DNA from: a virus
Virus record (IMG/VR): IMGVR_UViG_3300020443_000089
Span: 1-40,073 of that record
Strand: one strand, 5' to 3'
Length of the DNA stretch: 40,073 nucleotides
The notes beneath the pieces are model-generated. The model was not told the DNA's origin. It worked only from the letters and a program-made list of their open reading frames with translations, and searched no databases. This document shows, piece after piece, positions 1,899 through 38,968 of this stretch. Position numbers and translations under genes: made by a program. Numbering within the stretch: the stretch's first letter is position 1; each line of letters opens with the position of its first letter.

Positions 1899-3878
1899 AT
1901 GGAAGTTAAAAAATGGTTGAATGCGCAAGAATTGGCCGACTATCGGTTAAAGAGTTTACCATCAACAAAAGCTGGTGTCATCTATCGAGCGAAAAAAGAT
2001 GACTGGTCTAACCGAAAACGGTCTGGACGTGGTGGCGGTACTGAATACGCCTTTGACGGTCTGCCTGCTGATGTACAAGCAGAAATCAAAGCCAAGGCTT
2101 ATAAGGCATTGATGCCCAAGCAGTCAACAAAGGCGCAACGTGATATCGCGGTGATCGCTAACCGTAGTATCGACACGCTAGACAGTGACCAACGTGCGAC
2201 TGCTGATGCTCGTTTACGCATGACCTTACTGGTCGATCAATACGAAGTGTCTGCGGGTAGTCGCACTGCTGCTATCAAGCTGGTGTCTGAGATGAGTCGT
2301 GATTTGGCGCTGCCCGTTGATGAGACAACTGACTACAACACGGTCTGTGCAACGGCTTTGGCTAAGACTCGCGGTAAGGCTGGTGTCGGTGTACGCAGGT
2401 TGCACCAGTGGTGTCTAGATGCTGCGAAGTGTGAGACGCCAACCGAGCGACTGCTGGCGCTTGCCCCGCAAAAGCAAGGACAGCCTGTTATTAAACCGAC
2501 GCGTATGGAGTGGATGCCAGACTTTATGGCGGTCTATCGTAATACCAATGGTCTGAGCATGGCTGAAGCGTATCGCACGTTTGAGCTGTCATACGGCGCG
2601 AAACATGGCGCTGATGCTGTCCCTCACTATGACGCGGTGCGCCGTGCGATGGACAAGATGCCGAAATATGTGCGCGAATGTGGCCGTCTGACTGGCGCAA
2701 GCATGAAAGCACTCAAGACCTACGTAAAACGCGACTGGTCAACGCTGGTCAATAACGATGTGTGGACTGGTGATGGTCACAGCTTAAAGATGAAAGTCGC
2801 TCATCCTGACCACGGCAAGCCGTTTACACCTGAGCTTACGCTGATTATGGACACGGCCAGTCGCTATATCGTTGGCTGGTCAATGGCTTACTCAGAAAAC
2901 ATGCTTGCTGTTGGTGATGCGCTGCGTCATGCGATGACCAAGCACGGTATCCCTGCGATTTACTACTCGGATAACGGCTCTGGTCAGAAAAACAAGACGT
3001 TTGATACGGATGTGATCGGTATTTTTCCGCGCCTTGGTGTCCATCATGAGACAGGCATACCAGGCAATCCACAAGGGCGCGGCATTATTGAGCGTGCCAT
3101 GAAAACGATTGCCCATCCTATCGCTCGTGAGTTTGAAACCTATCACGGTCCGAACGTTGATAGCGATACACATCGCAGAATCAGTACCGCTACGACAAGT
3201 CTTGCCAATGCACAGGCTGCGGGACGTGAGGTACTGACGCCTAAGCAGGCTTGGGCTAAGGGCAAACTACCAAGCTGGCAGCAACTGCTTGATGTCACTG
3301 AAGCGGTTATCCACTGGTACAACACAGAGCACAAGCATACCGCGCTTGGCAATGTGACCCCAGCGGCGATGCGTCAACATATCTTTAATCAAATGGATGC
3401 TGAAGACATCATCCTGCTGACTGAAGTCGAAGCCCGCGATATGTTCCGCCCTGCGGTGAGCCGTAAAGTACAACGCGCATGGGTCACGGTCTATAACAAT
3501 GAGTACTGGCATCAGGCGCTAGAAGCGTGGGACGGCAAATATGTCGATATCTTTATCGATCAGCACGACGCGTCAACGGTCATCATCCGTGACAAAGACG
3601 GCAGTTATATCTGTGATGCCATCCTGAATGGCAATAAGCGTCTGGCATTCCCTGAAACACTGGTCGAACGCACCAAGCGTCAACGTGCTGAGACTCGTAT
3701 CAAGAAATTGGATGAGAAAAAAGCACAAGCACTTGCTGAGACTCGCCCAACTATTGAGCACGAAAAAGCGCAGACATTGCACGAGCTGATGCCGACGACT
3801 GTAACACCAGAAGCTAAGACCGAATATTTTATGTTTCTCACAGATGCTGAAGACACTAACAAAAAGCAAGCTAAATAA
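1899..3878 (+). CDS. A: Mu-type DDE transposase (MuA-like)
   Basis: This 659-residue protein is close in length to MuA (663). It binds the end sites and performs replicative transposition and integration. Residues 1-65 resemble the Mu winged-helix end-binding domain (AQELADYRLKSLPSTKAGV). The RNase H-like core spans about 280-420 with the catalytic triad Asp292 (TGDGHS), Asp358 (YSDNGSG) and Glu399 (GRGIIERA). These are spaced as in MuA (Asp269, Asp336, Glu392). The beta-barrel Mu C-terminal region follows, then a charged tail that in MuA contacts MuB. An AGGATAAAGG ribosome site precedes ATG 1899, and gene B follows 15 bp downstream. Confidence 0.97.
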   Translation: MEVKKWLNAQELADYRLKSLPSTKAGVIYRAKKDDWSNRKRSGRGGGTEYAFDGLPADVQAEIKAKAYKALMPKQSTKAQRDIAVIANRSIDTLDSDQRATADARLRMTLLVDQYEVSAGSRTAAIKLVSEMSRDLALPVDETTDYNTVCATALAKTRGKAGVGVRRLHQWCLDAAKCETPTERLLALAPQKQGQPVIKPTRMEWMPDFMAVYRNTNGLSMAEAYRTFELSYGAKHGADAVPHYDAVRRAMDKMPKYVRECGRLTGASMKALKTYVKRDWSTLVNNDVWTGDGHSLKMKVAHPDHGKPFTPELTLIMDTASRYIVGWSMAYSENMLAVGDALRHAMTKHGIPAIYYSDNGSGQKNKTFDTDVIGIFPRLGVHHETGIPGNPQGRGIIERAMKTIAHPIAREFETYHGPNVDSDTHRRISTATTSLANAQAAGREVLTPKQAWAKGKLPSWQQLLDVTEAVIHWYNTEHKHTALGNVTPAAMRQHIFNQMDAEDIILLTEVEARDMFRPAVSRKVQRAWVTVYNNEYWHQALEAWDGKYVDIFIDQHDASTVIIRDKDGSYICDAILNGNKRLAFPETLVERTKRQRAETRIKKLDEKKAQALAETRPTIEHEKAQTLHELMPTTVTPEAKTEYFMFLTDAEDTNKKQAK

Positions 3879-3893
3879 ATAAGGACATTAATC

Positions 3894-4769
3894 ATGAGTA
3901 TCGAACTATTAAAAGCACATATCGAAGCCACTGGCATGAGTCAAAAGCAGGTCGGCTCGCAGCTTGGCTACTCTGCCTCAGTTATCAATCAGTACCTTAA
4001 AGGGACTTATGGCGGCGACGTTAAAAGCATTGATAAGGCGGTTGCCGAGCTGACACAACGCCAAGAGAGCAAAGCGACTGACGTGTCGAGTGAGTTTATC
4101 GCGACGCCAACCGCCAAACGCACGCTCGAAAGCTGTGGTTTCGCTCACGCCATGAACGACATGCAGCTGGTCATTGGTGATGCTGGGCTGGGTAAGACGA
4201 TGGCGCTCAAAGAGTATGCCGCGCGTCATAGCAATGTGGTGATGCTGGAAGTTGATCCGACCTTTAGCGCGAAAGTGTTACTGACTGAACTTTGCAACTT
4301 GCTGGGCGTGACAACTGGACGCAACAACAACGCGATGATGACGGCTGTGATCGAAAAGCTCAAAGGCTCTGACCGTCTACTCATCGTCGATGAGGCTGAG
4401 CTGCTGACGCTGAACTCGCTTGAGATACTGCGCCGCATCCATGACAAAGCTGGCATCGGTATCGTGCTCGCTGGTATGCCGCGCCTACGCGCCAACCTGC
4501 GCGGTGCGCGTGGACAGTACAAGCAAATCTATAGCCGTATCGGCATGGTGCATGATCTCAAAATGCGTCTACCTGCTACTGATATCGCGATGTTTTGTGA
4601 GGCGGCACTGGGTACAGATGCGTTTAATGAGCGTTTAGAGAAAGTATCAGGCGGTAATGCTCGTCGTTTAAACAAACTGCTGCGCGGTATCAATCGCCTC
4701 GCTGTGATTAACAAAGCGCCAGTCACGGTAGAGATGATTGATCGTTTTGCCGATATGTTGATTGATTAA
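3894..4769 (+). CDS. B: MuB-like AAA+ target-DNA-binding ATPase
   Basis: This 291-residue ATPase should form filaments on target DNA, deliver targets to the transposase and give target immunity, as MuB does (312 residues). An N-terminal helix-turn-helix (MSQKQVGSQLGYSASVINQYL) occupies residues 15-37. Walker A is GDAGLGKT (95-102) and Walker B is LLIVDEAE (162-169), with conserved downstream arginines in RLRANLRG. The C-terminal helical domain includes SGGNARRLNKLLRG. It follows the transposase gene directly, as in all Mu-like phages. Confidence 0.95.
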   Translation: MSIELLKAHIEATGMSQKQVGSQLGYSASVINQYLKGTYGGDVKSIDKAVAELTQRQESKATDVSSEFIATPTAKRTLESCGFAHAMNDMQLVIGDAGLGKTMALKEYAARHSNVVMLEVDPTFSAKVLLTELCNLLGVTTGRNNNAMMTAVIEKLKGSDRLLIVDEAELLTLNSLEILRRIHDKAGIGIVLAGMPRLRANLRGARGQYKQIYSRIGMVHDLKMRLPATDIAMFCEAALGTDAFNERLEKVSGGNARRLNKLLRGINRLAVINKAPVTVEMIDRFADMLID

Positions 4770-14554: not shown

Positions 14555-16045
14555 ATGTTTGGCATAAAACCTAAAAAGCAAAAAGTAGATCAAAAGACAC
14601 TCTATGTCGCTTTTGATAGTGCGCTTGAGAGTAGCGATGCGGTCAGCGCTGACGTGCTGCTACAAGAAACGGGCAAGACGCGCCAAGAGTTGCTGGACGC
14701 AGTGATGGCAGATGACGAAGTGCTTAGTTGTCGTGCAGATATTGAAGGTGCTATCAGCGCCGCTGCTTGGCGTATCTGGGGTGATGACGTCGATGAAGCG
14801 TTAATCAATCGATTGTATCGCATGTTTAGGCGACTGTATAAAGATTTTGAGGGTATTGCGGTACTGGCAACTTTTAACGGCTACTGTGTCGGTGAGTATG
14901 TGTTTAAGCGCGAGTCTGACGGTTTTTTGACTATCGATAAAGTCTTATCAAAAGATGGCGAGCTAGACAATTACACGCCTCAGCGTGATGGCTCGGTTTT
15001 GTTGGCGACAGAAGATGACGCCATTGAGATCAATCAAACGATTAAGTACCTAGTGCTTACCAGTAAGGCCGTTCCCGCGCGTCCTGCGGGTGAAATGATG
15101 ATTGTCCGTGCTTATCCTGCGGTCGCACTGCGTCGCCGCGAATGGGCGTATGCAGGTCAGTTTATTGCCCGTTACTCACAGCCCTACGTCGTCGGTATGC
15201 AAGGCTCTGACAGTGGGTTTGGTACGACGCTTAGCGACTTTACCAGTAAGATATTTAGCTTTATCAATGGCGGTGCTGCTGGTATTGGTAAAGACGACAA
15301 GATTGAGATGCACCAGCTGTCAGGTGATGGTGCTGCGTTTGAGTTGTTTGAGCGTCTTGCCAATCGCCGTATCCAAAAGCTGCTACTGGGACGCGTCAAG
15401 ACCAGTGAGCTTACCGCAGGGTCGCGCTCAGCGCAAGAAACGGACGATGAAGCCCGCCAAGACCGAGTGATGTCCTATCTAGGGCTGATGACTCGCGGCA
15501 TACAACATGCTATCGATGCCATTATCGCGGTAAATCAAGCATGGGGTGTGCCAATAAACGCCCCGCAAGGCATCTGGTTTGAATATCCAGTCGTCAAAAA
15601 ATTCAGCAAAGACGAGGCTGAGATTGACGCAAAATACGTCAGTACTGGGCAAGTGCGCTTGACTAAGCAAAGACTGCTCAATGTCGGCTATGAAGAGTCT
15701 GAGTTTGAGATTATTGATAATGCTGCGCCTGCACCGACACCAGTACCGTCTACGCAGCAAATACTTGACCAGCTATCACTGCAATACAAGCTGTCGCAAA
15801 ACCTACCAACCATCATTACTGACCCTGCGACGGATGACGACATCGAGCAAGAGCGCGGTTTGATGGAGCCTAAAATGGCTGCACTCCTTGCACTGGCGCA
15901 AAAATGTGACAGCTATGATGAGCTAAAGCTAGGGCTTGCCAAGCTTGATCTGCCTGATGAGGGTTTGGTTGCCGACCTTGCTGACAAATTGGTCAATAGC
16001 TTTACTGATGGCCTAGGTGTCAATAAGGACGATAAAGATGCCTGA
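14555..16045 (+). CDS. Portal protein (DUF935, Mu gp29-like)
   Basis: This 496-residue protein forms the dodecameric DNA channel at the head vertex. DUF935 features include DIEGAISAAAWRIWG (62-76), RAYPAVALRRREWAYAGQFIARYSQPYVVG, and the conserved LLLGRVKTSELTAGSRSAQ. An extended Asp/Pro-rich C-terminal tail follows. It comes directly after terminase and overlaps the Mu F gene by 8 bp, the Mu gene order 28-29-30. Confidence 0.95.
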   Translation: MFGIKPKKQKVDQKTLYVAFDSALESSDAVSADVLLQETGKTRQELLDAVMADDEVLSCRADIEGAISAAAWRIWGDDVDEALINRLYRMFRRLYKDFEGIAVLATFNGYCVGEYVFKRESDGFLTIDKVLSKDGELDNYTPQRDGSVLLATEDDAIEINQTIKYLVLTSKAVPARPAGEMMIVRAYPAVALRRREWAYAGQFIARYSQPYVVGMQGSDSGFGTTLSDFTSKIFSFINGGAAGIGKDDKIEMHQLSGDGAAFELFERLANRRIQKLLLGRVKTSELTAGSRSAQETDDEARQDRVMSYLGLMTRGIQHAIDAIIAVNQAWGVPINAPQGIWFEYPVVKKFSKDEAEIDAKYVSTGQVRLTKQRLLNVGYEESEFEIIDNAAPAPTPVPSTQQILDQLSLQYKLSQNLPTIITDPATDDDIEQERGLMEPKMAALLALAQKCDSYDELKLGLAKLDLPDEGLVADLADKLVNSFTDGLGVNKDDKDA

Positions 16046-17702
16046 TGCTTATACGGATGCCAACTTTAACATCTTGCCCAATGCCGAGGCGATTGCTGCT
16101 TTTAATGCAAAGATGGTTGGCTCAAGCTTTAGTTATCTAGATGTGCTGGCGCATGAGCACGCTGTCGCCTTTACCGTCGCTAAGATGATGGACGCTGATA
16201 TGCTGGCCGAGACTCGTGATGCTATCAGCGCAGCATTAGAAAACGGTACGGATTTTCGTGACTTCCAAAAGCGTCTGAAGCCGTATCTGATGAGTAAAGG
16301 CTGGTGGGGTGAGCAAGTCATGAGCGACCCAAAAGACGGCTCAGTACAAAAAGTACAACTAGGCTCAACCCGTCGTCTACGGACTATCTATCAAACAAAC
16401 CTGCACACCGCATACGCGGCTGGTCAATGGGATCGTATACAGCAGACTAAAGACGCACTGCCATATCTGCAATATATGCCGTCCTTAGCAACCCGCAAGC
16501 GACGCGACCACAAGCAGTACTATGGCATCATTAGACCTGTTGACGACCCAATCTGGCAGCAAATACTACCGCCAAATGGTTACGGGTGTCTGTGCTGGGT
16601 TAAGCAGCTAACACGCGCCCAAGCCGAACGTGCGGGCGGCGTCACTGAAGATAAAGACATCGAGTACGAGGAAATTGAAAACCCACGTACAGGCAAGACA
16701 GAGCGTGTGCCGACGGGTATTAGCTTAAGCTTTGCGCATAATCATGGCGATAGAATTGGCTCACTACTAAAAATTGCTGAAGGTAAGCATGGTAGTGACT
16801 TTGCCAAGCAGCTGCAAGACGAGGCTAATAAGATACTAGCACGCTACAACGTACCTGAAATAGCAACGGCTATATTGCCCGCTGCTGCTCAGTGGCAAGA
16901 AGCTGCTGCCATTGGTAAAGAAATCTACCGCAAGCACGCCGAGACATTTGATGCCGTCGATTTGGATGAAGCGTACGCATTTTCAGATGCGCTTATAGAG
17001 GTCATGGAGCGTGAGGGCGTGCCCACTGGGGCGCTTGCTAAGCTTGGCGGTGACAAGACCAGTGAGGTGCAAGCGATATTGGGGCGCTATCCGTCATCGT
17101 GGGTCGATAAAGCCAATGAAGCTGGTACGACCTATGTCAGAGAATTGCCGACTCGTGCATTTCACTTGTATGTTGATAGCGATCAAACCTCGAACGTCTT
17201 AAAAACACAAATATCAAGGCATAAGCAGCTGAAAGTGTTTGCTAAATTCGTCGATGATATTGCGCCAGGCGACAGCTTTATGAAAGTTGGCAAGATGGCA
17301 AAAGGTAAGATGGATGCGGCAAGCTTTGATGTTGCCATCCATGAATACGGTCATCGTTTACAAGCCGTCATGCCTGAACTAGACGCTTATTTTAAACAGC
17401 TATGGATAGACCGCACCAAGGGCGAGCGCACGCGACCACTGGCGCTGATACAAAAAGAACGCGGCGAATATCCGTATTACGCACCAAGCGAAGTCGGCCG
17501 CCGAGACAACTTTGCCAATGTCTATATCGGTCGTAACTATGGCAGTGATACAGACCCTAAGCCGCTTGAGCTGATTACTATGACGATGCAAACAATCTTA
17601 GGTAGCGGTCAAGCGCAATCGCTTACGATAAAACACTTGTTAGATAATGACCCTGATATGCTATACTTAGCCATCGCCTTATTGACAAGATACACGCCAT
17701 GA
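16038..17702 (+). CDS. Mu F-like minor head protein with C-terminal metallopeptidase-like domain
   Basis: This 554-residue protein. Residues 1-235 are a Mu F/SPP1 gp7-type minor head domain (RTIYQTNLHTAYAAGQWDR; PPNGYGCLCWVKQL at 178-191). A further roughly 250 residues follow, longer than the morphogenesis part requires. This region carries an HExxH zinc-protease motif, HEYGH (435-439, in FDVAIHEYGHRLQ), with Glu511 (PLELITMTMQT) a possible third ligand. MuF proteins with variable C-terminal toxin domains are a known phage polymorphic-toxin class, usually with an immunity gene next door; the acidic 116-residue gene downstream fits. ATG 16038 has AAGGA eight bases upstream. Confidence 0.88.
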   Translation: MPDAYTDANFNILPNAEAIAAFNAKMVGSSFSYLDVLAHEHAVAFTVAKMMDADMLAETRDAISAALENGTDFRDFQKRLKPYLMSKGWWGEQVMSDPKDGSVQKVQLGSTRRLRTIYQTNLHTAYAAGQWDRIQQTKDALPYLQYMPSLATRKRRDHKQYYGIIRPVDDPIWQQILPPNGYGCLCWVKQLTRAQAERAGGVTEDKDIEYEEIENPRTGKTERVPTGISLSFAHNHGDRIGSLLKIAEGKHGSDFAKQLQDEANKILARYNVPEIATAILPAAAQWQEAAAIGKEIYRKHAETFDAVDLDEAYAFSDALIEVMEREGVPTGALAKLGGDKTSEVQAILGRYPSSWVDKANEAGTTYVRELPTRAFHLYVDSDQTSNVLKTQISRHKQLKVFAKFVDDIAPGDSFMKVGKMAKGKMDAASFDVAIHEYGHRLQAVMPELDAYFKQLWIDRTKGERTRPLALIQKERGEYPYYAPSEVGRRDNFANVYIGRNYGSDTDPKPLELITMTMQTILGSGQAQSLTIKHLLDNDPDMLYLAIALLTRYTP

Positions 17703-18049
17703 CGACCATCGACTTTATGTTTGATAGCCAAAAACTGACTTTAGACCTCAAGAAAGGTTTATTGGTCGGTGATCGTGCTGCCAAAAATAAGCTGGTGGCT
17801 ATCATCGATAGTGCGCAGTCGGCAGCGGTGTACTACGGCTCAGACTATACGCCAGTCCCTGCGATTGCGATAGACGACGCTTATCGCAACATTGAGCAGT
17901 TTGCTACTTGCTTGATGTTTGAGTTGCCTGCTGATGAGTTCCCAGCTGCGCTATCGCCTTATGTTGCAAAATGGCCTGATGATTTGGAGCCGCTCACAGA
18001 CGATGAGCAAATGGCCGCTGAGTTGTTAGACGATCTAATGATTTATTAG
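17699..18049 (+). CDS. Small acidic protein, candidate partner of the MuF protein
   Basis: This 116-residue protein is strongly acidic toward the C-terminus (WPDDLEPLTDDEQMAAELLDDLMIY). Its start overlaps the MuF stop by ATGA, so the two are translated together. No family is recognised. By position and charge it resembles immunity proteins paired with polymorphic toxins; that is inference. It is the last gene of late block 1, ending 17 bp before a terminator. Confidence 0.75.
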   Translation: MTTIDFMFDSQKLTLDLKKGLLVGDRAAKNKLVAIIDSAQSAAVYYGSDYTPVPAIAIDDAYRNIEQFATCLMFELPADEFPAALSPYVAKWPDDLEPLTDDEQMAAELLDDLMIY

Positions 18050-18065
18050 CATCGTATCAATCAAG

Positions 18066-18093
18066 AAACCCACCCTAATCGGTGGGTTTTTTT
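18066..18093 (+). terminator. Terminator of late block 1
   Basis: AAACCCACC (18066-18074) pairs perfectly with GGTGGGTTT (18081-18089) across CTAATC, ending in seven T. It is among the strongest in the window. Confidence 0.9.
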
Positions 18094-18368: not shown

Positions 18369-19364
18369 ATGCCAAAAGACCATAAAAAGCCAAATATCTA
18401 CCTGCTCTCTGAAGTCAATGTCGCTGATGCCCCTGCTGATGCTGACAAATCCTTGCCGCGTAAGTTTAGCGGTGTCGCCAATAGTGGCAAGCCGTTTAAT
18501 CATTACGGTGAAATGGTTGTCGTTGACTTAACTGACATTCAATACAAAGCAAACGTCCCAGCGCTATTGCTACATGACCGCGCCCAACGTGCGGGCTTTG
18601 GCACGTTAAGCGTTGAAAGCAATCAGTTGATGATGAATGGCTTACTACTTGATAACCAGTTTGGGCGTGAAGTCGCTGAAGAGTCAGATGCTGGTTTTCC
18701 GTGGCAAATGTCAGTCCACGTCAATGCTAACAGTGTCACCGAGCTGGGACAGAACGAGACGGCAACCGTCAACGGTGCGGAAGTTACTGGGCCTTTAGTT
18801 ATCCTCAAAAATTGCAGTGTCAGCGAAGTCTCCTTTACGCCAACGGGCGTGGACTCTGAAACGAACGCGGTTGCTCTTGCTGACAGCGGCATCCCAAAAT
18901 CAACCACTCAACCTAATACACAAAAGGACACCACCATGACTCCTGAAGAAATCGCAGCCCTACAAAAGCAAGTCGCTGACCAAGCGGAAGAAATCAAAAC
19001 CCTCAAAGAAGAAAAGGCCGAGCTGGTCAAAGAAAAGGCTGAAGCTGAAGCCGAAGCAAAAGCTGCCGCTATCGATGCGCAACTGTCACAAGCTGGTTTT
19101 ACCAAAGCTGAAAACGGCGAAGGCTGGGACGGTATCGGCAAAGCAACAATGAATATGCTGCTGTCTGCATCGCCTGAAGATGCCAAAGAGATGATCGGTG
19201 ATTTGCGTGCGCCTGGTAAGCAAGATGGAACGCCAGAATGGTTGCTCAGCGAGCAGCACAAGCCTAGCGGTAATGGTGGCGGTCAAGACCGTCAGTTGTC
19301 GTCTAATCCGATGCTTGCCAATGCTGAAGCACGCGCCATCGAGGCGTCAAAAAACTATATTTAA
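18369..19364 (+). CDS. Prohead protease with fused scaffold (Mu I/Z-like)
   Basis: This 331-residue protein. Residues 10-180 are a prohead-protease domain; likely catalytic residues are His69 (LLLHDRAQ) and Ser115 (PWQMSVHV), followed by VSEVSFTPTGVD. Residues 190-300 are a Glu/Ala/Lys coiled-coil scaffold. The protein helps capsid subunits assemble and is then degraded. An internal start at 18936 would make the scaffold alone, as for gene Z inside gene I of Mu. It is the first gene after late promoter 2. Confidence 0.9.
   Translation: MPKDHKKPNIYLLSEVNVADAPADADKSLPRKFSGVANSGKPFNHYGEMVVVDLTDIQYKANVPALLLHDRAQRAGFGTLSVESNQLMMNGLLLDNQFGREVAEESDAGFPWQMSVHVNANSVTELGQNETATVNGAEVTGPLVILKNCSVSEVSFTPTGVDSETNAVALADSGIPKSTTQPNTQKDTTMTPEEIAALQKQVADQAEEIKTLKEEKAELVKEKAEAEAEAKAAAIDAQLSQAGFTKAENGEGWDGIGKATMNMLLSASPEDAKEMIGDLRAPGKQDGTPEWLLSEQHKPSGNGGGQDRQLSSNPMLANAEARAIEASKNYI
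18936..19364 (+). CDS. Scaffold protein from an internal start
   Basis: ATG 18936 is in frame with the protease gene (codon 190) and has AAAAGGA seven bases upstream, a stronger ribosome site than that of the full gene. The product is 142 residues: MTPEEIAALQKQVADQ, coiled coil to about residue 50, then a Gly/Pro-rich tail. Nested scaffold genes are known in Mu and lambda (C/Nu3), so separate production is very likely. Confidence 0.75.
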   Translation: MTPEEIAALQKQVADQAEEIKTLKEEKAELVKEKAEAEAEAKAAAIDAQLSQAGFTKAENGEGWDGIGKATMNMLLSASPEDAKEMIGDLRAPGKQDGTPEWLLSEQHKPSGNGGGQDRQLSSNPMLANAEARAIEASKNYI

Positions 19365-23603: not shown

Positions 23604-23643
23604 GTATATGATGCGATAGATAATATGCTTATATCTCAGGTGG
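23604..23643 (+). promoter_or_regulatory. Possible moron promoter and ribosome site
   Basis: AT-rich gap between the terminator and the lipoprotein gene holds TATGAT (23606) and TAATAT (23621), either of which could be a -10 box; no good -35 is seen. AGGTGG (23639-23644) is a strong ribosome site for ATG 23647. Confidence 0.4.
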
Positions 23644-23646
23644 AAT

Positions 23647-24240
23647 ATGAAAAAGTTGATAGCACCATTGTTTTGTATGATTTTGGCAGGCTGCGGGGGT
23701 GGTTATGATGAGATTGACCAAAAACGAGGCGCATTAATCGGCAGTGACCCCTCAACGTCTAATCCGTCTAACCCATCCAACCCCTCAACGCCCAATCCAT
23801 CGACTGAAGGTTTGTGGGAATATAACCAAACAGGTACATCAAGGTTTGCTGAGATACGATCATCAAATACAATACCGACGTCTAACGAGCTTAACGATGC
23901 AATCATGATTGTTCGTATACAGAATTTTATAGATTCTGCCGGCACACAAAAAGACTATTTGACAATTACGGTGTTGTTTGCAGATACGGATTGCCTAGTT
24001 AACTGCCAACTACGTCACAAAAAAAATGGCAGTACTAGCGGCGTCTATCGCGTCAGACAGAGCATAAACGGTGTATTCAACGAGAATAGCTTTGCGTCAG
24101 GTGATATGGAGAAACTTATAAAGCAGATTAAAATATCAAACAAATCAACGATTAGTGTACCGCTAATAGGTGTGCCAGATGCTGAGTTTGAGTTTGATTT
24201 TTCTGGCTATGATTCAGACTATATGGATGCTGATCGTTAA
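23647..24240 (+). CDS. Phage-encoded lipoprotein (moron-like)
   Basis: This 197-residue protein has a lipoprotein signal peptide ending ILAGC, acceptor Cys16, a glycine run, and a Ser-Asn-Pro repeat linker (SNPSNPSNPSTPNPS, 38-52). A beta-rich domain with two neighbouring cysteines (TDCLVNCQL) follows. It lies between a terminator and late promoter 3, in more AT-rich sequence than the structural genes, the classic setting of a moron. Phage lipoproteins of this kind often block receptors against superinfection; that role is inferred, not seen. Confidence 0.8.
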   Translation: MKKLIAPLFCMILAGCGGGYDEIDQKRGALIGSDPSTSNPSNPSNPSTPNPSTEGLWEYNQTGTSRFAEIRSSNTIPTSNELNDAIMIVRIQNFIDSAGTQKDYLTITVLFADTDCLVNCQLRHKKNGSTSGVYRVRQSINGVFNENSFASGDMEKLIKQIKISNKSTISVPLIGVPDAEFEFDFSGYDSDYMDADR

Positions 24241-24585: not shown

Positions 24586-27500
24586 ATGGCAAATCGCTTA
24601 GATACTGAGCTGCTCATCACTGCTGGTGTGGACGGCTTACAACATATCGACAAGCTAATCGCAAAAATAGAAGAAGCTGGCGGTGATACCGAGCAGCTGC
24701 GCGATGCTGCCCGCCGATTGAATAGCGAATGGGATGATTTGTCCGCTGAAGAGCAAGCCTCTAGGCTGCGTGACCTTGGCAATGCCGCCAATAATAGCGC
24801 TGGTGACTTAGGGCTGTTGCGACGCCGTACAGATGAAGCAAACAATTCAACCGATAGACTGGGTCAAGGTGTCGATAGCGTCAAAGGTGCGCTCAATGGC
24901 CTAAAAGGGTTGATAGCCACCCTTGGTATATCGGTCGGTGCAACAGAGCTGCTAGAGATGGCAGACTCTTACAAAACCCTAGAAGCAAAAATAAAACTAG
25001 CCACTGGTGAGGGTGTCAACTTTATCAATGGCTTTGGCGGTGTGCAAGATATCGCTAACGAGACTTTTACCAGTATAGAGGATACAGGCGAGCTATTTGC
25101 TCGTATTAGCCGTGCTGGTAAAGAGATGAATCTGGCACAGCAAGACGTGCTATCGGTTACTAAAACGATTAACGAGGCGATACAGCTATCAGGCGGTAGC
25201 GCTGAGTCTAATCAAGCCGCGATTACGCAGCTGATCCAAGGCTTGCAGTCAGGTGTCGTACGCGGCGAAGAGTTCAACTCCATTATGGAGCAGTCGCCAC
25301 GCCTCGCACGCGCGATGGCAGATGGTTTAGGCGTCACATTGGGTCAACTACGGTCAATGGCAGCTGAAGGCAAGCTGACATCTGAGGTCGTCATCAATGC
25401 GGTGCAATCACAAGGCGAAGCGATCCAGTCTGAATTTGATGCGATGCCACTTACGATTGGTCAATCGTTAACACAGTTAAAAAACAATTTTTTAAGTTTC
25501 GTCGGTGATATTGATAAGCAGCTCAATTCATCAGGCGGCGTGTCGTCTATTATCCAGCAAATGGCAGAAAGCTTAGATGATATCGATCCCGCTACCGTTG
25601 ATGCCGTAAAAGAGGCATTTGCCCAGCTTGGCGAAGTCGCTCAATTATTAGGCGAAAATGTATTCACAGTAACAGATAATTTAGGTGAGGTCTGGAACGC
25701 TTTTGATGGCACGACTGCTGCTGGTGAAAAGGTTGGACTCTTAACTAAGATAGTTCAAGAGCTGTCTATTTTTATCGGTCATATTGCCGATGGTGTCAAA
25801 GGTTTACAAATCGCAAGTGACCTCGCTTGGGGCGGAATGCTTAAGGGCATCAGCTTGCTGCTCGAAGCCTACGCCAAGCTAACAGGAGGCAGTACTGACG
25901 CCGCTGATGCCATGATGGCAAAAGGCGACGAGATGGTCGCCCGTGCCAAAAAGAATGCTTTAGAATTTGAATCATCTGCGGTCGCTGCTGCTGATAACGC
26001 TGCTAAGACACATCAACAAAGACTGGATGAAACAGCGGTTAAGTCACGTCAAGCGTATGAGCAAATGGCTGCTGACGGTACAGCATCAGCGGGTAAGATT
26101 CAAGAAGCCTATGTCAGAGCGGCGCTGGACGCTATCAAAGCCAATGGTGATGTCGTCGATGCAAGATTAGAGGCTGAGCTTGCTGAGCAAGGTCTTCAAG
26201 CTGAAATTAGTGAGACAGGTCGCGTTACCATTGTTGCTATCGCTGAGCAGTCTAGAGCAATGCAAGATGCTGCTGGCATCTCAGAAGAGCTGAGCCGCGA
26301 GATTGATAAAGCCTCGGCATCGTTTAAGACGCTAGGTCTTGATGCTGAATATTTTGCAACTGGCATGGATAGTAAGGTCACAGCGTCTCTGTCCGCATTC
26401 AGTGAGGTGGCGCAAATAGCGGGTGACGATACCGCTATGCTCGCTCGCGCCTATGGCGCTGCATCTGAAAAGGTCGGTACCAATGTCCAAGCTCAAGCCA
26501 TGCTTCAGCAGCAACTACTTGCATCGACAAATGGTAACAGCCAACTCGCTGACGAAGTCAAACGTGTCGCGATCGAGCAGAAAAACGCCAAGAGCGCGGC
26601 TGATGACCAAGCAGTGGCACTATCTCGCCTCGGCATCAGCATGGATGCCGTCAATCAAAGCATGAGCGCATCAGGGCTTGAGATGGTGACGACGCTACGC
26701 AATGGCATCACCGCTATCAAAGAACAAGCCACCAGTGCCGATGCCTTAAAATCGGCGCTAACTCAAGCATTAGATACTTCACTTGCTGCGGCCAAGACCA
26801 AAGCAGATTTTGAGGCTATTAGCCAAACGCTTAAAGCGGCTGGTGTGTCTGGCCAAGTCACTGCTGAGCAAATGAAGCTACTACAAGTGGGTATGCAGGG
26901 TGGCGCTGATGCGGTAGATGCGCAAACCAAGGCGTTAAACAATAATGCTCTCGCAAACACCTACAACACCAATGCCACAGCTGATAACGCAAATGCCAAA
27001 AAAGAACAGGCTGACGCTGCTGATAAAGCCGCCGCCGCTGTTGCCAAGTCTACCCAAAACGAAAGCGCGAGCCTTGCGGTCATGCAGCAGATCACAGGCA
27101 CTATCAAAGCCAAGATAAGCGCACTTGAGCAGATGGGCGCAACCACTGAGCAAGTCGATGGCGTCTGGCGCAGTTTAACGGACAGCATGAATGGCATGAA
27201 GTTTCTAGGCATCGCTGATTTTGCAAGCAACATGCAGCGTGTCGATGATGCTGTCAGCGAGCAAATTACCAGCTTTGAGAATGCCAAAAATAGAGCTGAA
27301 GAGATGACGCAAGCACTCAGTGGTAGCGCTGTGACCAGCCGTGACCTCGTCGACGCTCAGCACGCGCTGCGCAAAGCAACGGACGCCAATGTGCAAGGCA
27401 TGATACGCCTAGATGACCAAACCTTAGCTAATCTACAAAACGCTATCGACGGTGCTCGCACCCGTATGCAAGGACTGTCTGACGATGCCAAAAATACTGC

Positions 27501-27918
27501 CGACAGCTTAGAAGCAACGCTTGCGAAACTACAAGGCAACGAAGACAAGGCGCGCGACATAGAGCAAACCCGCAAACTTACTGAGCTTGAAGAAAAACTC
27601 AACGAAGCCAAAGCCCGTGGCAATACTGAAGAAATAGCTCAGCTCAATCGTGCCCTCGCTCTGCAAAAGCAAATCAACCGTGAGGAAGACAAAGCGGCTC
27701 GCGAGCGTGAACGTCAATCTCAGCAAAGCAGCACACCGCAATCATCTACTCGTCAGTCTAGCAACACTAATCCCGCCAGTACTGGCAGTAATAACAATGC
27801 AGTTGAGGTTGTAGACGCATTGGATGCACGTATCGAAGCTGCCAAGAAACAAGCGGCAGCTGAAGCAGTGGCAAACTTTACACAGCAACTCAAAGACGAG
27901 GCGAAACGACGCACATGA
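24586..27918 (+). CDS. Tail tape measure protein
   Basis: This 1110-residue protein sets tail length. Residues 100-300 are the tape-measure N-terminal domain (ELLEMADSYKTLEAKIKLATGEG; QLIQGLQSGVVRGEEFNSIMEQSPRLARAMADGLG). A hydrophobic Gly/Leu-rich region around 395-430 follows, then long Ala-rich coiled coils, a heptad block near 985-1055 (EEKLNEAKARGNTEEIAQLNRAL) and a Ser/Gln/Thr linker. Start codon is set against the hairpin at 24560-24585. The tail-assembly chaperone frameshift pair usually found before it was not seen. It overlaps the next gene by ATGA. Confidence 0.94.
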   Translation: MANRLDTELLITAGVDGLQHIDKLIAKIEEAGGDTEQLRDAARRLNSEWDDLSAEEQASRLRDLGNAANNSAGDLGLLRRRTDEANNSTDRLGQGVDSVKGALNGLKGLIATLGISVGATELLEMADSYKTLEAKIKLATGEGVNFINGFGGVQDIANETFTSIEDTGELFARISRAGKEMNLAQQDVLSVTKTINEAIQLSGGSAESNQAAITQLIQGLQSGVVRGEEFNSIMEQSPRLARAMADGLGVTLGQLRSMAAEGKLTSEVVINAVQSQGEAIQSEFDAMPLTIGQSLTQLKNNFLSFVGDIDKQLNSSGGVSSIIQQMAESLDDIDPATVDAVKEAFAQLGEVAQLLGENVFTVTDNLGEVWNAFDGTTAAGEKVGLLTKIVQELSIFIGHIADGVKGLQIASDLAWGGMLKGISLLLEAYAKLTGGSTDAADAMMAKGDEMVARAKKNALEFESSAVAAADNAAKTHQQRLDETAVKSRQAYEQMAADGTASAGKIQEAYVRAALDAIKANGDVVDARLEAELAEQGLQAEISETGRVTIVAIAEQSRAMQDAAGISEELSREIDKASASFKTLGLDAEYFATGMDSKVTASLSAFSEVAQIAGDDTAMLARAYGAASEKVGTNVQAQAMLQQQLLASTNGNSQLADEVKRVAIEQKNAKSAADDQAVALSRLGISMDAVNQSMSASGLEMVTTLRNGITAIKEQATSADALKSALTQALDTSLAAAKTKADFEAISQTLKAAGVSGQVTAEQMKLLQVGMQGGADAVDAQTKALNNNALANTYNTNATADNANAKKEQADAADKAAAAVAKSTQNESASLAVMQQITGTIKAKISALEQMGATTEQVDGVWRSLTDSMNGMKFLGIADFASNMQRVDDAVSEQITSFENAKNRAEEMTQALSGSAVTSRDLVDAQHALRKATDANVQGMIRLDDQTLANLQNAIDGARTRMQGLSDDAKNTADSLEATLAKLQGNEDKARDIEQTRKLTELEEKLNEAKARGNTEEIAQLNRALALQKQINREEDKAARERERQSQQSSTPQSSTRQSSNTNPASTGSNNNAVEVVDALDARIEAAKKQAAAEAVANFTQQLKDEAKRRT

Positions 27919-35918: not shown

Positions 35919-36914
35919 ATGAGTAAGATGATGAATGCGCTTATCCTAGAAAATTTCGGTGATCATGAATTTAAACGTGTAGAACTCCCTATACCTCAAC
36001 CAGAGGCTGGGCAAGTTCTAGTACGTATTCATGCCAGTGGTGTAAACCCTATTGATTATAAAATTCGTCTTGGTGAAGCACCATATGCTATGCCAGAGCT
36101 TCCTGCCGTGTTAGGCACGGATATGGCTGGAGTTGTAACTGCTGTTGGTGAAGGTGTCACTCACTTCAACGTCGGAGATGAAGTTTACGGTCTGATTGGT
36201 GGCGTTCGTGGTCTTCAAGGATCTTTAGCAGAATATGTTGCAGTAGATGCTGATCTGATCGCATTAAAGCCACGGAATATCTCTATGCGCGAGGCAGCAG
36301 TACTACCATTGACGTTCCTCACCGCTTGGGAAGGTTTAGTGGATAGTGCGAAGGTCCAACCAGGGCAAACTGTACTTGTTCAAGGTGGTGCTGGTGGCGT
36401 TGGTTATATGGCGGTTCAGCTTGCAAAAGCACTTGATGCAAATGTTTGGGCGACTGGTCGTACAGCTGATCAATCACTGATTTCAGAACTCGGTGCAACA
36501 CCTCTCGATTACACAACAGCATCTTCCGATGACATTATTGCTGCAAGCCCTGAGGGTCAAGGTTTTAACATTGTTTACGACACTGTGGGTGGTCCAGTAC
36601 TCGAAGCGTCACTTTCCATGACGACTCACTATGGCCACATCACCAGCTGTGCTGCATTTGGCAATCATAATTTAGCGAATTCATCTCTACGGAGTGCCAC
36701 AGTGTCTGGCGTATTCGTCCTAATGCCGACGTTAACAGGCAATCGCCGTGCTCATCATGGTGATGTCCTTAAGACCGCGACTCGTCTCGTTGAGGAAGGT
36801 AAACTGCGTGCTATTGTTGATCCTCGTCATTTTACTCTAGACCAAGCGATTGAGGCTCATGATGCTGTTCAAGATCGCTCTGCCAATATTAAGGTAGTTA
36901 TCGATGTCATTTAA
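35919..36914 (+). CDS. NADPH-dependent MDR-family oxidoreductase (quinone reductase-like)
   Basis: This 331-residue enzyme has the medium-chain dehydrogenase/reductase fold: N-terminal catalytic domain (VLVRIHASGVNPIDYKIRLG, VLGTDMAGVV) and a Rossmann domain with QGGAGGVGYMAVQLAKA (about 156-172) for NADPH. The zinc-binding cysteines of alcohol dehydrogenases are absent, placing it with the quinone/enone reductases. The substrate is unknown. It overlaps the next MDR gene by 11 bp, forming an operon. Confidence 0.9.
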   Translation: MSKMMNALILENFGDHEFKRVELPIPQPEAGQVLVRIHASGVNPIDYKIRLGEAPYAMPELPAVLGTDMAGVVTAVGEGVTHFNVGDEVYGLIGGVRGLQGSLAEYVAVDADLIALKPRNISMREAAVLPLTFLTAWEGLVDSAKVQPGQTVLVQGGAGGVGYMAVQLAKALDANVWATGRTADQSLISELGATPLDYTTASSDDIIAASPEGQGFNIVYDTVGGPVLEASLSMTTHYGHITSCAAFGNHNLANSSLRSATVSGVFVLMPTLTGNRRAHHGDVLKTATRLVEEGKLRAIVDPRHFTLDQAIEAHDAVQDRSANIKVVIDVI

Positions 36915-37920
36915 CGCACTTCAGGCCAAGACTTGGCGCTTCAATTGTATTGGAGATACAGATGTTCTGACATTAGAAACACTTCCTGTTGCTTTACCAG
37001 CCGCAGGAGAAGTTCTAATACAGATGAAAACGATCGGACTCAACCGAGCTGATGTAATGTTTCGGCGTGGTACTTATATTCAAAAGGCAGTATTCCCTTC
37101 TCGTCTGGGATATGAGGGAGCAGGCATAGTTCTTGCGGTAGGTGAAGGTGTACGCCAATTTTCTCCAGGAGATGCAGTATCGATTCTTCCTACTGACAAT
37201 CTCGCCAAATATGGGACATATGCGGACAAGCTTCTGATTCCAGAAAATTTTTTAGTTCACAAACCCGATAGCTTAAGCTGGGAAGAAGCTTCTTCAATCT
37301 GGATGCAGTATTTGACGGCTTGGGGTGGTGTCATCCATGCTGGTGGATTATCGAAAGGAAAAACGATCTTGATCACAGCAGCTTCAAGTAGCGTAGGATT
37401 AGCTGCGATACAGATAGCTGAAGCAGCGGGTGCTAAGGTCATTGCAAGTACACAGACGATAGAGAAAAAGCAACGTTTGCTGGATCTCGGTGTTAAAGAT
37501 GTTATAGCCAGTGAAGATGAACCAGATTTGTATGAGGCGCTTGTTTTACGTTTGGGTGGAGAACATCTTGATGTCGCCTTCGATGCTGTAGGAGGGCCAC
37601 ATATCGAACAGATTGCAAAAGCGATGTCTGTGGCAGGAACTATGGTTATGCATGGTGCACTTAGCCCGGAGAATACACCATTTCCCCTTAAAATTGCATT
37701 ACGCAAGAGCTTAACCATGCGAGGTTTTTTGTTCCTTGAGGTTCTCCATGACCCTGTTCTAAGGGAGCAAGCCAGACGATTTATTCTGAGCAGTATAGGT
37801 GCAGGATATCTTCGTCCAGTGATCGACCGTTGCTTTAACTTTGAGGACATGCATGACGCTCAGCGCTATCTTGAATCAAATCAGCAAATAGGAAAAATTG
37901 TAGTTACTCTAGATACATGA
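36904..37920 (+). CDS. Second MDR-family oxidoreductase
   Basis: This 338-residue zinc-independent MDR protein has GLNRADVMFRRGTYIQKAVFPSRLGYEGAG split over residues 39-68, and the dinucleotide-binding motif TAASSSVGLAAIQIAEA (about 157-173). The usual GxGxxG is written ASSSVG, as in many quinone-reductase relatives. Start codon lies within the end of the preceding gene. Two paralogous reductases translated together suggest action on related electrophilic carbonyls, which is inference. Confidence 0.9.
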   Translation: MSFNALQAKTWRFNCIGDTDVLTLETLPVALPAAGEVLIQMKTIGLNRADVMFRRGTYIQKAVFPSRLGYEGAGIVLAVGEGVRQFSPGDAVSILPTDNLAKYGTYADKLLIPENFLVHKPDSLSWEEASSIWMQYLTAWGGVIHAGGLSKGKTILITAASSSVGLAAIQIAEAAGAKVIASTQTIEKKQRLLDLGVKDVIASEDEPDLYEALVLRLGGEHLDVAFDAVGGPHIEQIAKAMSVAGTMVMHGALSPENTPFPLKIALRKSLTMRGFLFLEVLHDPVLREQARRFILSSIGAGYLRPVIDRCFNFEDMHDAQRYLESNQQIGKIVVTLDT

Positions 37921-37934
37921 TGGTCTTATCTGAT

Positions 37935-38834
37935 TTAGGTTTCTATATGGCCCAGCACTTCCACTAAGTAATCAAACAATGCTCGGATTCGCAAAGGTGT
38001 CGGGCCCCGCTGTGGACGATATAAATACAGACGCCAAACGGGAGAGGTTTCCTCATGAAGTATATGAATGAGCTTACCACTCCTAAGCCACGGCAAAACT
38101 AGAAATCCAGGCATGTGTCCGAATCCAACTCCAGCGAGAATAGCTTGAAATTCAGCTTCTAGATCATCTGTAATAAAACGGGGCTTTGATGGCGTAAAGC
38201 TTCGACTTTCGGTGAATGTCCATGGCCAGTAACGCCCTGTTTTATGATCGAATAGTGCTGTTAGAGGGTATTTATCAAGGTCAATAATTTTTTTGGGCAT
38301 TCCAACCTTATCAATTAACTCTGGCGTACCAACAGAATAAAATTTCACTTTAGCCAATTCCCTTGCCACATATCGATTGTCCGGCAAAAATCCAAATCTG
38401 ATCCCGATATCTATCCGCTCATCGATCACATCCGAGTGTGAGTCTGTTAGCACACAATCCACGACAATATCTGGATAACGTGTGGCAAATTCTGCTAGTG
38501 CAGGTACTACCAATTTACGCCCTAACACAGACGACACAGTAAGGCGGACAGTCCCACGCATTTCATCTCGTTTTTCCTTGGTGTCTTTTACAAGCAAAGC
38601 ATCGATCGATTCCACTGCAAGACGTGCTTGCTTTGCCAGACGCTCACCATCAGCGGTAATTTTAATTTGTCGAGTACTCCTGTAAAACAGAATCTCTCCG
38701 CGCTGCTCTTCTAGCTCTTTTATTGCCCGTGTCACTACCTGAGGGGAAATACCCAACTGAGTTGCTGCCTCTTTAAAATTTCGAGACTCTGCTGCGACAC
38801 AAAAGATACGCATCATTTCCAATTTGTTCTGCAT
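37935..38834 (-). CDS. LysR-family transcriptional regulator
   Basis: This is a 299-residue regulator. The winged helix-turn-helix is at about 1-60 (MQNKLEMMRIFCVAAESRNFKEAATQLGISPQVVTRAIKELEEQ), followed by a periplasmic-binding-protein-like effector domain (VRLTVSSVLGRKLVVPALAEF). ATG 38834 is chosen as it matches the normal LysR N-terminus; an in-frame ATG at 38897 would add 21 unusual residues and run across the operator dyad. It converges on the MDR operon and diverges from the SDR gene, both likely targets. Confidence 0.93.
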   Translation of the reverse strand: MQNKLEMMRIFCVAAESRNFKEAATQLGISPQVVTRAIKELEEQRGEILFYRSTRQIKITADGERLAKQARLAVESIDALLVKDTKEKRDEMRGTVRLTVSSVLGRKLVVPALAEFATRYPDIVVDCVLTDSHSDVIDERIDIGIRFGFLPDNRYVARELAKVKFYSVGTPELIDKVGMPKKIIDLDKYPLTALFDHKTGRYWPWTFTESRSFTPSKPRFITDDLEAEFQAILAGVGFGHMPGFLVLPWLRSGKLIHILHEETSPVWRLYLYRPQRGPTPLRIRALFDYLVEVLGHIET

Positions 38835-38858
38835 GTCCAAACCTGTGTTATGGTAATT

Positions 38859-38875
38859 ATTCCGAAAATAGGAAT
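38859..38875. promoter_or_regulatory. LysR-type operator (T-N11-A dyad)
   Basis: ATTCC-GAAAATA-GGAAT is a perfect inverted repeat containing T-N11-A, the classical LysR box. It lies 25 bp upstream of the regulator start, between it and the divergent SDR gene. Confidence 0.7.
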
Positions 38876-38968
38876 TCTGAAAGATAATATTATTCATTTA
38901 TTATACCTAACAAGGCTGCAATACTTAACCCTCCAATATAATTGACAGATAGGTTAAAGGTTACTTGT

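What the first reader, a model, noticed from the sequence alone, without database searches (positions are those of the whole stretch)
16038..18049. MuF protein carrying an HEYGH metallopeptidase-like domain with a coupled acidic partner: candidate phage polymorphic toxin and immunity pair
Seen: a Mu F morphogenesis domain (1-235) is followed by about 300 further residues with HEYGH at 435-439 and a possible third ligand Glu511. The next gene overlaps by ATGA and makes a small acidic protein. Known: temperate phages carry MuF proteins with variable C-terminal toxin domains, often followed by an immunity gene. Inferred: here the effector is a zinc protease delivered in the virion or released between lysogens, and the 116-residue protein neutralises it. 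An alternative is a protease acting in head maturation.
Basis: partly seen in the sequence, partly recalled or inferred. Interest (0 to 1): 0.85.

Follow-up and report, generated by a model that had tools for sequence, protein, structure and literature searches.

The report
Phage zinc-protease toxin and immunity cassette
A bacterial virus carries a swappable add-on to one of its head proteins that looks like a zinc protease weapon, made together with a small antidote-like protein; the antidotes of its relatives come from many unrelated-looking families yet tend to end in the same short tail, as if each plugs the protease in the same way.

Summary
The gene (ATG at 16038) encodes a 554-aa MuF protein. 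Residues 1-259 are the conserved MuF part; residues ~335-554 form a zinc-peptidase domain with HEYGH (435-439) and Glu511, invariant in homologues found without selecting for it. An acidic 116-aa gene (pI 4.05) overlaps it by ATGA.

The C-terminal slot varies. Siblings 88-89% identical over residues 1-259 lack the domain; a 75% relative carries the CdiA tRNase toxin domain, and more distant ones CdiA tRNase or ADP-ribosyltransferase, each with a different small downstream gene. DNA homology to a sibling stops at 16813 and resumes at 18060, so exactly the domain plus partner is the exchanged cassette. This supports a polymorphic toxin/immunity module and argues against a head-maturation protease. 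Toxicity, delivery and binding are untested.

MuF metallopeptidase toxins as a kind are published (Jamet 2017). What seems new: this zinc-peptidase family has no useful Pfam or NCBIfam model, and its partners (62 non-redundant, ~25 families without detectable homology) share a C-terminal tail, commonly [A/V/R][V/I][Y/F]-COOH (last residue Y/F 36/62 vs 7/146 control genes). I propose the tail enters the active-site cleft as a product mimic; docking evidence is inconclusive.

The parts
14555..16045 (+). Portal protein (Mu type), overlaps the MuF start by 8 nt
   Evidence: PF06074 E 1.7e-31
16038..16814 (+). Conserved MuF part of the fusion protein, residues 1-259 (carrier)
   Evidence: PF04233 res 60-187; 88-89% identity to L002/L003 stops at residue 259
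16815..17699 (+). Variable C-terminal region, residues 260-554; linker/helical lead ~260-335, zinc-peptidase domain ~335-554
   Evidence: A1 alignment; AF2 model; absent from siblings
17154..17156 (+). R373, invariant Arg upstream of the HExxH helix
   Evidence: A1 and A3
17340..17354 (+). HEYGH, residues 435-439, zinc ligands and catalytic Glu (predicted)
   Evidence: invariant H, E, H in A1; helix with pLDDT ~90
17523..17540 (+). Y496-x-G-K/R-x-Y501, invariant Tyr pair between HExxH and third ligand
   Evidence: A1, A2
17568..17570 (+). Glu511, predicted third zinc ligand
   Evidence: invariant in A1, which was gathered without motif selection; helix 211-221 of the model
17699..18049 (+). 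Acidic 116-aa partner, candidate immunity protein, ATGA overlap with MuF stop
   Evidence: 90% identical copy in L014
18035..18046 (+). C-terminal tail L-M-I-Y of the partner, matching the family-wide tail
   Evidence: tail statistics
18063..18093 (+). Hairpin followed by U-run, intrinsic terminator; homology to siblings resumes at 18060
   Evidence: fold -16.8 kcal/mol, z -4.5; boundaries
18369..19364 (+). Separate head maturation protease/scaffold gene
   Evidence: PHROG 3244 E 1.8e-20

Best explanation
A temperate Mu-like phage of Psychrobacter or a close relative carries a MuF polymorphic toxin. The MuF part puts the protein into the capsid (inferred from known MuF/SPP1 gp7 proteins). The C-terminal domain is a zinc-dependent peptidase that is meant to cut a protein of the recipient cell when the phage injects, or when the protein is freed on lysis (inferred). 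The co-translated 116-aa acidic protein is the cognate immunity protein, keeping the peptidase inactive in the producing cell and in lysogens (inferred from gene order, cassette exchange and clade-by-clade pairing). Most likely the immunity protein's free C-terminal tail (LMIY in the window) enters the substrate cleft as a product mimic, with its carboxylate near the zinc, while the rest of the protein gives specificity (inferred; slightly under even odds). Toxin domain and partner move together as one cassette between homologous MuF and terminator flanks (shown by sequence).
For: Slot polymorphism: L002/L003 88-89% identical over 1-259 but ending at 291 aa; a 75% Psychrobacter relative L028 carries PF18664 CdiA_C_tRNase (E 1.5e-8) plus a 98-aa partner; more distant relatives (L004-L013, L015) carry CdiA_C_tRNase (down to 4.5e-23) or ART (5e-16) with other partners. 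Cassette edges: DNA homology to L002 ends at 16813 and resumes at 18060. Peptidase family: invariant HExxH/E plus R, Y, Y, D in homologues from Bacillus, Lactococcus, Streptococcus, Flavobacterium and Planktothrix phages and Rhodococcus plasmids; confident core model matching phage proteins (BFVD E 8e-5). Nearly all of the 97 pattern-scan loci belong to the family, and most have a 70-116 aa gene starting within about 15 nt of the stop, ATGA overlap the commonest. Tail: last residue Y/F 36/62 vs 7/146 control small genes (P 7e-17), V/I at -2 42/62 vs 26/146; with one partner per family, 9-12 of 25 end Y/F (P about 1e-6). Codons and stops vary, so the constraint is on protein. Partner families follow domain clades. 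Phage is temperate: MuA, MuB-like, CI/S24 repressor.
Against: No toxicity, protease activity, binding or packaging data. No significant PDB fold match (best TM to a zincin 0.33, not significant). About 40% of partners end in residues other than Y/F (I, V, L, S, T and others). The window's partner has no homologue apart from its L014 twin in the searches made.
Confidence: 0.6

Rival explanations
1. The zinc peptidase is a head-assembly or self-processing protease that trims the MuF protein or other virion proteins, and the small gene is an assembly chaperone or inhibitor that delays it.
For: It is fused to a virion protein and sits between portal and capsid genes. Polyvalent-protein zincins have been proposed to process the proteins they belong to (PMC5512222).
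Against: Siblings 88-89% identical in the MuF part lack it altogether; others have a tRNase or ART in the same place; a separate head protease gene is present.
Confidence: 0.1
2. The domain is an injected effector that helps infection (for example cutting a host defence or regulatory protein) rather than a toxin against competitors; the partner protects the producing host or keeps the enzyme off before injection.
For: Jamet 2017 offers this kind of role for MuF peptidases; related domains occur in large polyvalent-type proteins.
Against: Exchange with classical CdiA tRNase toxin domains in close relatives fits a competition toxin better, but does not exclude this.
Confidence: 0.25
3. Rival to the tail mechanism only (can hold together with the toxin/immunity reading): the conserved partner tail is not an active-site plug but a degradation signal, or a motif for some other contact.
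For: Labile antitoxins use C-terminal degrons (general knowledge); the tail was not confidently placed in the fusion model.
Against: The same tail recurs over families with no detectable homology that share only the linked peptidase, in phages of several host phyla; partners of CdiA_C and ART MuF proteins seen here lack it.
Confidence: 0.4

Closest known systems
MuF polymorphic toxins of temperate phages (Jamet et al. 2017, PMC5576092)
   Same: MuF part, exchangeable C-terminal toxin domain, small downstream gene, temperate phage; 20% of their 191 MuF toxins had a metallopeptidase domain and 89% a following ORF under 150 aa
   Different: Which metallopeptidase families they counted could not be checked (tables not available), so this family may be among them; no shared partner tail is described in the parts read
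Bxa and Apk2 MuF toxins (PMC11699363)
   Same: MuF fusion in the head gene region with adjacent immunity genes; toxicity and immunity shown experimentally
   Different: ADP-ribosyltransferase and alarmone synthetase, not peptidase; two immunity proteins each
Zincin-like MPTase domains of polyvalent proteins (Iyer et al. 2017, PMC5512222)
   Same: HExxH zincin in phage multidomain proteins; weak resemblance to lethal-factor-type zincins in both
   Different: None of the 55 domain members matched a Pfam MPTase-PolyVal model at E 0.01; dedicated small partner gene
VgrG2b C-terminal metallopeptidase and PA0261 immunity (PMC6899460)
   Same: HExxH antibacterial effector domain fused to a phage-tail-like structural protein, neutralised by a partner that binds it
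   Different: T6SS, periplasmic target, immunity protein exported; no signal peptide is evident in the window's partner
Metallocarboxypeptidase inhibitors PCI, LCI, NvCI (PMC9966942)
   Same: Precedent for a protein inhibitor that puts its C-terminal tail into a zinc peptidase active site
   Different: Small inhibitors of M14 enzymes, unrelated sequence

Membership tests
MuF polymorphic toxin | N-terminal MuF domain | tested here: met
   PF04233 E 7e-17
MuF polymorphic toxin | C-terminal domain varies while MuF part is conserved | tested here: met
MuF polymorphic toxin | Toxin domain shared with other polymorphic toxin systems | tested here: inconclusive
   True of the alternative domains CdiA_C and ART; this peptidase also occurs in proteins without a detected MuF domain, including Rhodococcus plasmid proteins, but was not shown in T5SS/T6SS toxins
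MuF polymorphic toxin | Small immunity gene directly downstream | tested here: met
   Position only: ATGA overlap; across the family. Immunity function not tested
MuF polymorphic toxin | Encoded by a temperate phage | tested here: met
   Mu transposase, S24 repressor
MuF polymorphic toxin | Toxicity and neutralisation | not testable with these tools
   needs expression assays
Zincin (gluzincin-like) peptidase | HExxH plus downstream Glu ligand on a second helix | tested here: met
   A1 invariance; helices 127-144 and 211-221 of the model
Zincin (gluzincin-like) peptidase | Significant fold match to a solved zincin | tested here: inconclusive
   Foldseek PDB: no E below 0.001 for either model; lethal factor had the highest TM-score (0.33) and PPEP-1 and an HExxH carboxypeptidase appear, none significant. 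N-terminal part of the window model is low-confidence
MPTase-PolyVal (Pfam) | Match to the Pfam model | tested here: not met
   not among the families matched by the 55 members at E 0.01

The most novel reading that the evidence does not exclude
Many unrelated immunity families of one phage zinc-peptidase toxin family have converged on, or all retained, the same C-terminal product-mimic tail ([AVR][VI][YF]-COOH) that plugs the zinc cleft: a rule that would predict inhibitors, and hint at the cleavage preference of the toxin, from sequence.
Probability: 0.4. Interest if true: 0.8.

Novelty: new variant of a known kind. Interest (0 to 1): 0.62.

Why it matters
If right, it gives a clean experimental entry to a poorly studied class: phage-borne protease toxins. 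The catalytic residues, the exchangeable cassette with exact edges, and a four-residue tail in the antidote can each be tested by simple mutants. A shared tail on otherwise unrelated inhibitors would be an unusually simple way to recognise immunity genes, which are normally hard to find by sequence, and would hint at what the enzyme cuts.

Tried and rejected
PF18188 PPL4 (Prim-pol 4) matched residues 344-410 near its cut-off in the window protein only, and none of the other 54 members: treated as spurious. The first collection pattern had a missing base and found one contig; corrected. An alignment-based collection scan failed for lack of a conserved stretch; a coordinate error cost. A scan with the window domain alone found no close relatives in viral contigs. 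A first fused alignment misplaced the partner rows (A4) and was not used. The fusion model of the L105 domain plus partner, made by reading the TAA between two in-frame genes as Gly, folded both parts but did not place the tail. PDB fold and sequence searches gave nothing significant. hhalign did not unite the partner families once the tail was cut, apart from c3 with L131 and weakly L134. Whether the kind of last residue (aromatic or not) follows domain phylogeny: only weak clustering.

Full report
What is there. The window is an IMG/VR virus record of 40,073 bases. It holds a Mu-like transposable temperate phage: MuA-type transposase 1899-3878, AAA/MuB-like 3894-4769, CI-type S24 repressor 716-1411 on the minus strand, tape measure 24586-27918, and terminase, Mu portal, MuF, head protease and capsid genes in order. 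Its closest relative found is a Psychrobacter metagenome-assembled genome (L014), 98% identical over the MuF protein and about 89% in DNA over this region.

The protein. P0001 is 554 aa. PF04233 covers residues 60-187. Comparison with siblings puts the end of the conserved carrier at residue 259: homology to L002 runs to 16813 and picks up again at 18060. The rest is a 295-residue extension. Its last ~220 residues belong to a family found by tblastn in phages of Bacillus, Lactococcus, Streptococcus, Planktothrix and Flavobacterium and in Rhodococcus plasmids. In that set, collected without any motif requirement, the invariant residues are R373, H435, E436, H439, R459, T460, Y481, E485, D490, Y496, G498, Y501, E511 and D538 in window numbering. 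An AlphaFold2 model of the window's domain on 55 sequences has mean pLDDT 73 and about 86-97 over most of the HExGH-to-E511 core, with HExGH on one helix and E511 on a later one. Foldseek finds the same fold in phage proteins (BFVD E 8e-5; PaV-LD ORF080 among the hits). Nothing in the PDB is significant; among the insignificant hits lethal factor has the highest TM-score. Pfam and NCBIfam have no useful model for the family; PHROGs 33618, 8561, 19443 and 20397 cover it, annotated at most as minor head protein.

The slot is polymorphic. L002 and L003 have 88-89% identical MuF parts but end at 291 aa. L028 (75%, Psychrobacter genus search) carries CdiA_C_tRNase with a 98-aa gene 3 nt downstream. 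L029 (about 60%) has another, unidentified extension. L004 and L006 carry CdiA_C_tRNase and L009 and L012 carry ART; L005, L007, L008, L010, L011, L013 and L015 are near-copies of L004 or L006 by sequence. PF18664 CdiA_C_tRNase is a classical polymorphic-toxin domain, so the slot is a toxin slot in close relatives of this phage.

The cassette. The 16814-18059 segment, with the domain and partner, is what differs between the window and L002; the hairpin and U-run at 18063-18093 (fold -16.8 kcal/mol, z -4.5) lies in the conserved backbone. The portal-side and protease-side neighbours are shared. Window and L014 copies show purifying selection in the carrier, domain and partner (dN/dS 0.03, 0.10, 0.16), so both cassette genes are kept as working proteins; the partner changes fastest.

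The family and its partners. A pattern scan of 2.9 million viral contigs, plus earlier loci, gave 120 loci with the domain (this count includes repeated contigs). Most are followed by a 70-116 aa ORF whose start lies from about -15 to +15 nt of the stop; the ATGA overlap (-4) is the commonest (20 of 60 rows). The 62 non-redundant partners group into about 25 families that blastp and hhalign do not join; a few of the 62 are probably not real partners (L113, L125, L129, L148, L151) and were left in, which works against the result. Partner families largely follow clades of the domain, as expected for cognate pairs.

The tail. The partners tend to end alike: GVVY, DRVY, NAIY, DVIY, NIIF, GRVY, DCIY, NVTY, and in some clades GAII, GAVS, DAIL. 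The last residue is Y or F in 36/62 against 7/146 control small genes that are coupled to upstream genes in the same loci (P 7e-17); V or I at -2 in 42/62 against 26/146. Taking one partner per family, 9-12 of 25 end Y/F (P about 1e-6 at the minimum); for -2 the corrected value is P about 0.008 at the minimum. Tyr, Val and Ile are written with all their codons and all three stops follow, so the conserved thing is the peptide, not a DNA or RNA signal. Residues -3 to -5 are commonly A/V/R, G/D and E/P/D. Partners of CdiA_C and ART MuF proteins (ending FKPV, KAAA, SIPA, DEAA) do not share it. The window's partner ends LMIY.

How it probably works. Shown: a conserved peptidase-like domain in a toxin slot, moved together with a co-translated acidic partner. 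Inferred from the literature on MuF proteins: loading into the capsid and delivery with DNA (PMC5576092; toxicity and neutralisation have been shown for other MuF toxins, PMC11699363). Inferred here: the partner's C-terminal tail enters the active site as a product mimic. Precedents exist for protein inhibitors with a tail in a zinc-peptidase active site (metallocarboxypeptidase inhibitors, PMC9966942) and for HExxH effectors neutralised by binding (VgrG2b/PA0261, PMC6899460). The one structural test possible, a read-through fusion of the L105 domain and partner (TAA between the two in-frame genes read as Gly), gave well-folded parts and an unplaced tail (last block pLDDT 66): neither support nor refutation.

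Novelty. Metallopeptidase MuF toxins with small downstream genes are a published kind, so the pair itself is a new member. The specific domain family without a Pfam/NCBIfam name, the exact cassette edges and above all the recurring tail on partners without other detectable similarity are, as far as the held papers could be searched, not described; most subscription papers and all supplementary tables were out of reach. I therefore file it as a new variant of a known kind.

Noticed in passing
window 35919-38897: Zinc-binding alcohol dehydrogenase gene (PF08240/PF00107) and neighbours lie beyond the phage-like genes at the right end: host flank of the prophage or cargo. Megablast homology to the Psychrobacter contig stops at window position 23614, close to where that contig ends.
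   Followed up: partly
L003 1843-2139: A sibling without toxin domain keeps a 98-aa ORF downstream of the short MuF gene, perhaps an orphan immunity gene; no Pfam match.
   Followed up: partly
L019 4224-6469 (Planktothrix phage PaV-LD ORF080/081); L151: Two (L151: three) copies of the zinc-peptidase domain in separate ORFs of one locus; in PaV-LD followed by a 91-aa ORF ending DIVY.
   Followed up: no
L016 3300-5339 (Bacillus phage vB_BboS-125, AYP68438.1): Public annotation 'NAD(+)--arginine ADP-ribosyltransferase' covers a protein whose C-terminal domain is the HEMGH peptidase: likely misannotation.
   Followed up: partly
L021, L022 (Rhodococcus plasmids): HEMSH members of the family on an N-terminal part that differs from the phage MuF proteins; no directly coupled partner gene was evident.
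   Followed up: no
L155 (G378 C146): Degraded copy of the domain with stop codons inside, with a partner-like ORF downstream that still ends GAVF.
   Followed up: no
L031, L045, L047 (G292): One genome of the Psychrobacter genus search holds three MuF loci with identical match scores, perhaps copies of one transposable prophage.
   Followed up: no
window 23647-24240: 197-aa protein starting with a lipoprotein-like signal (MKKLIAPLFCMILAGCGGG) in the tail gene region; no PHROG or Pfam match.
   Followed up: no
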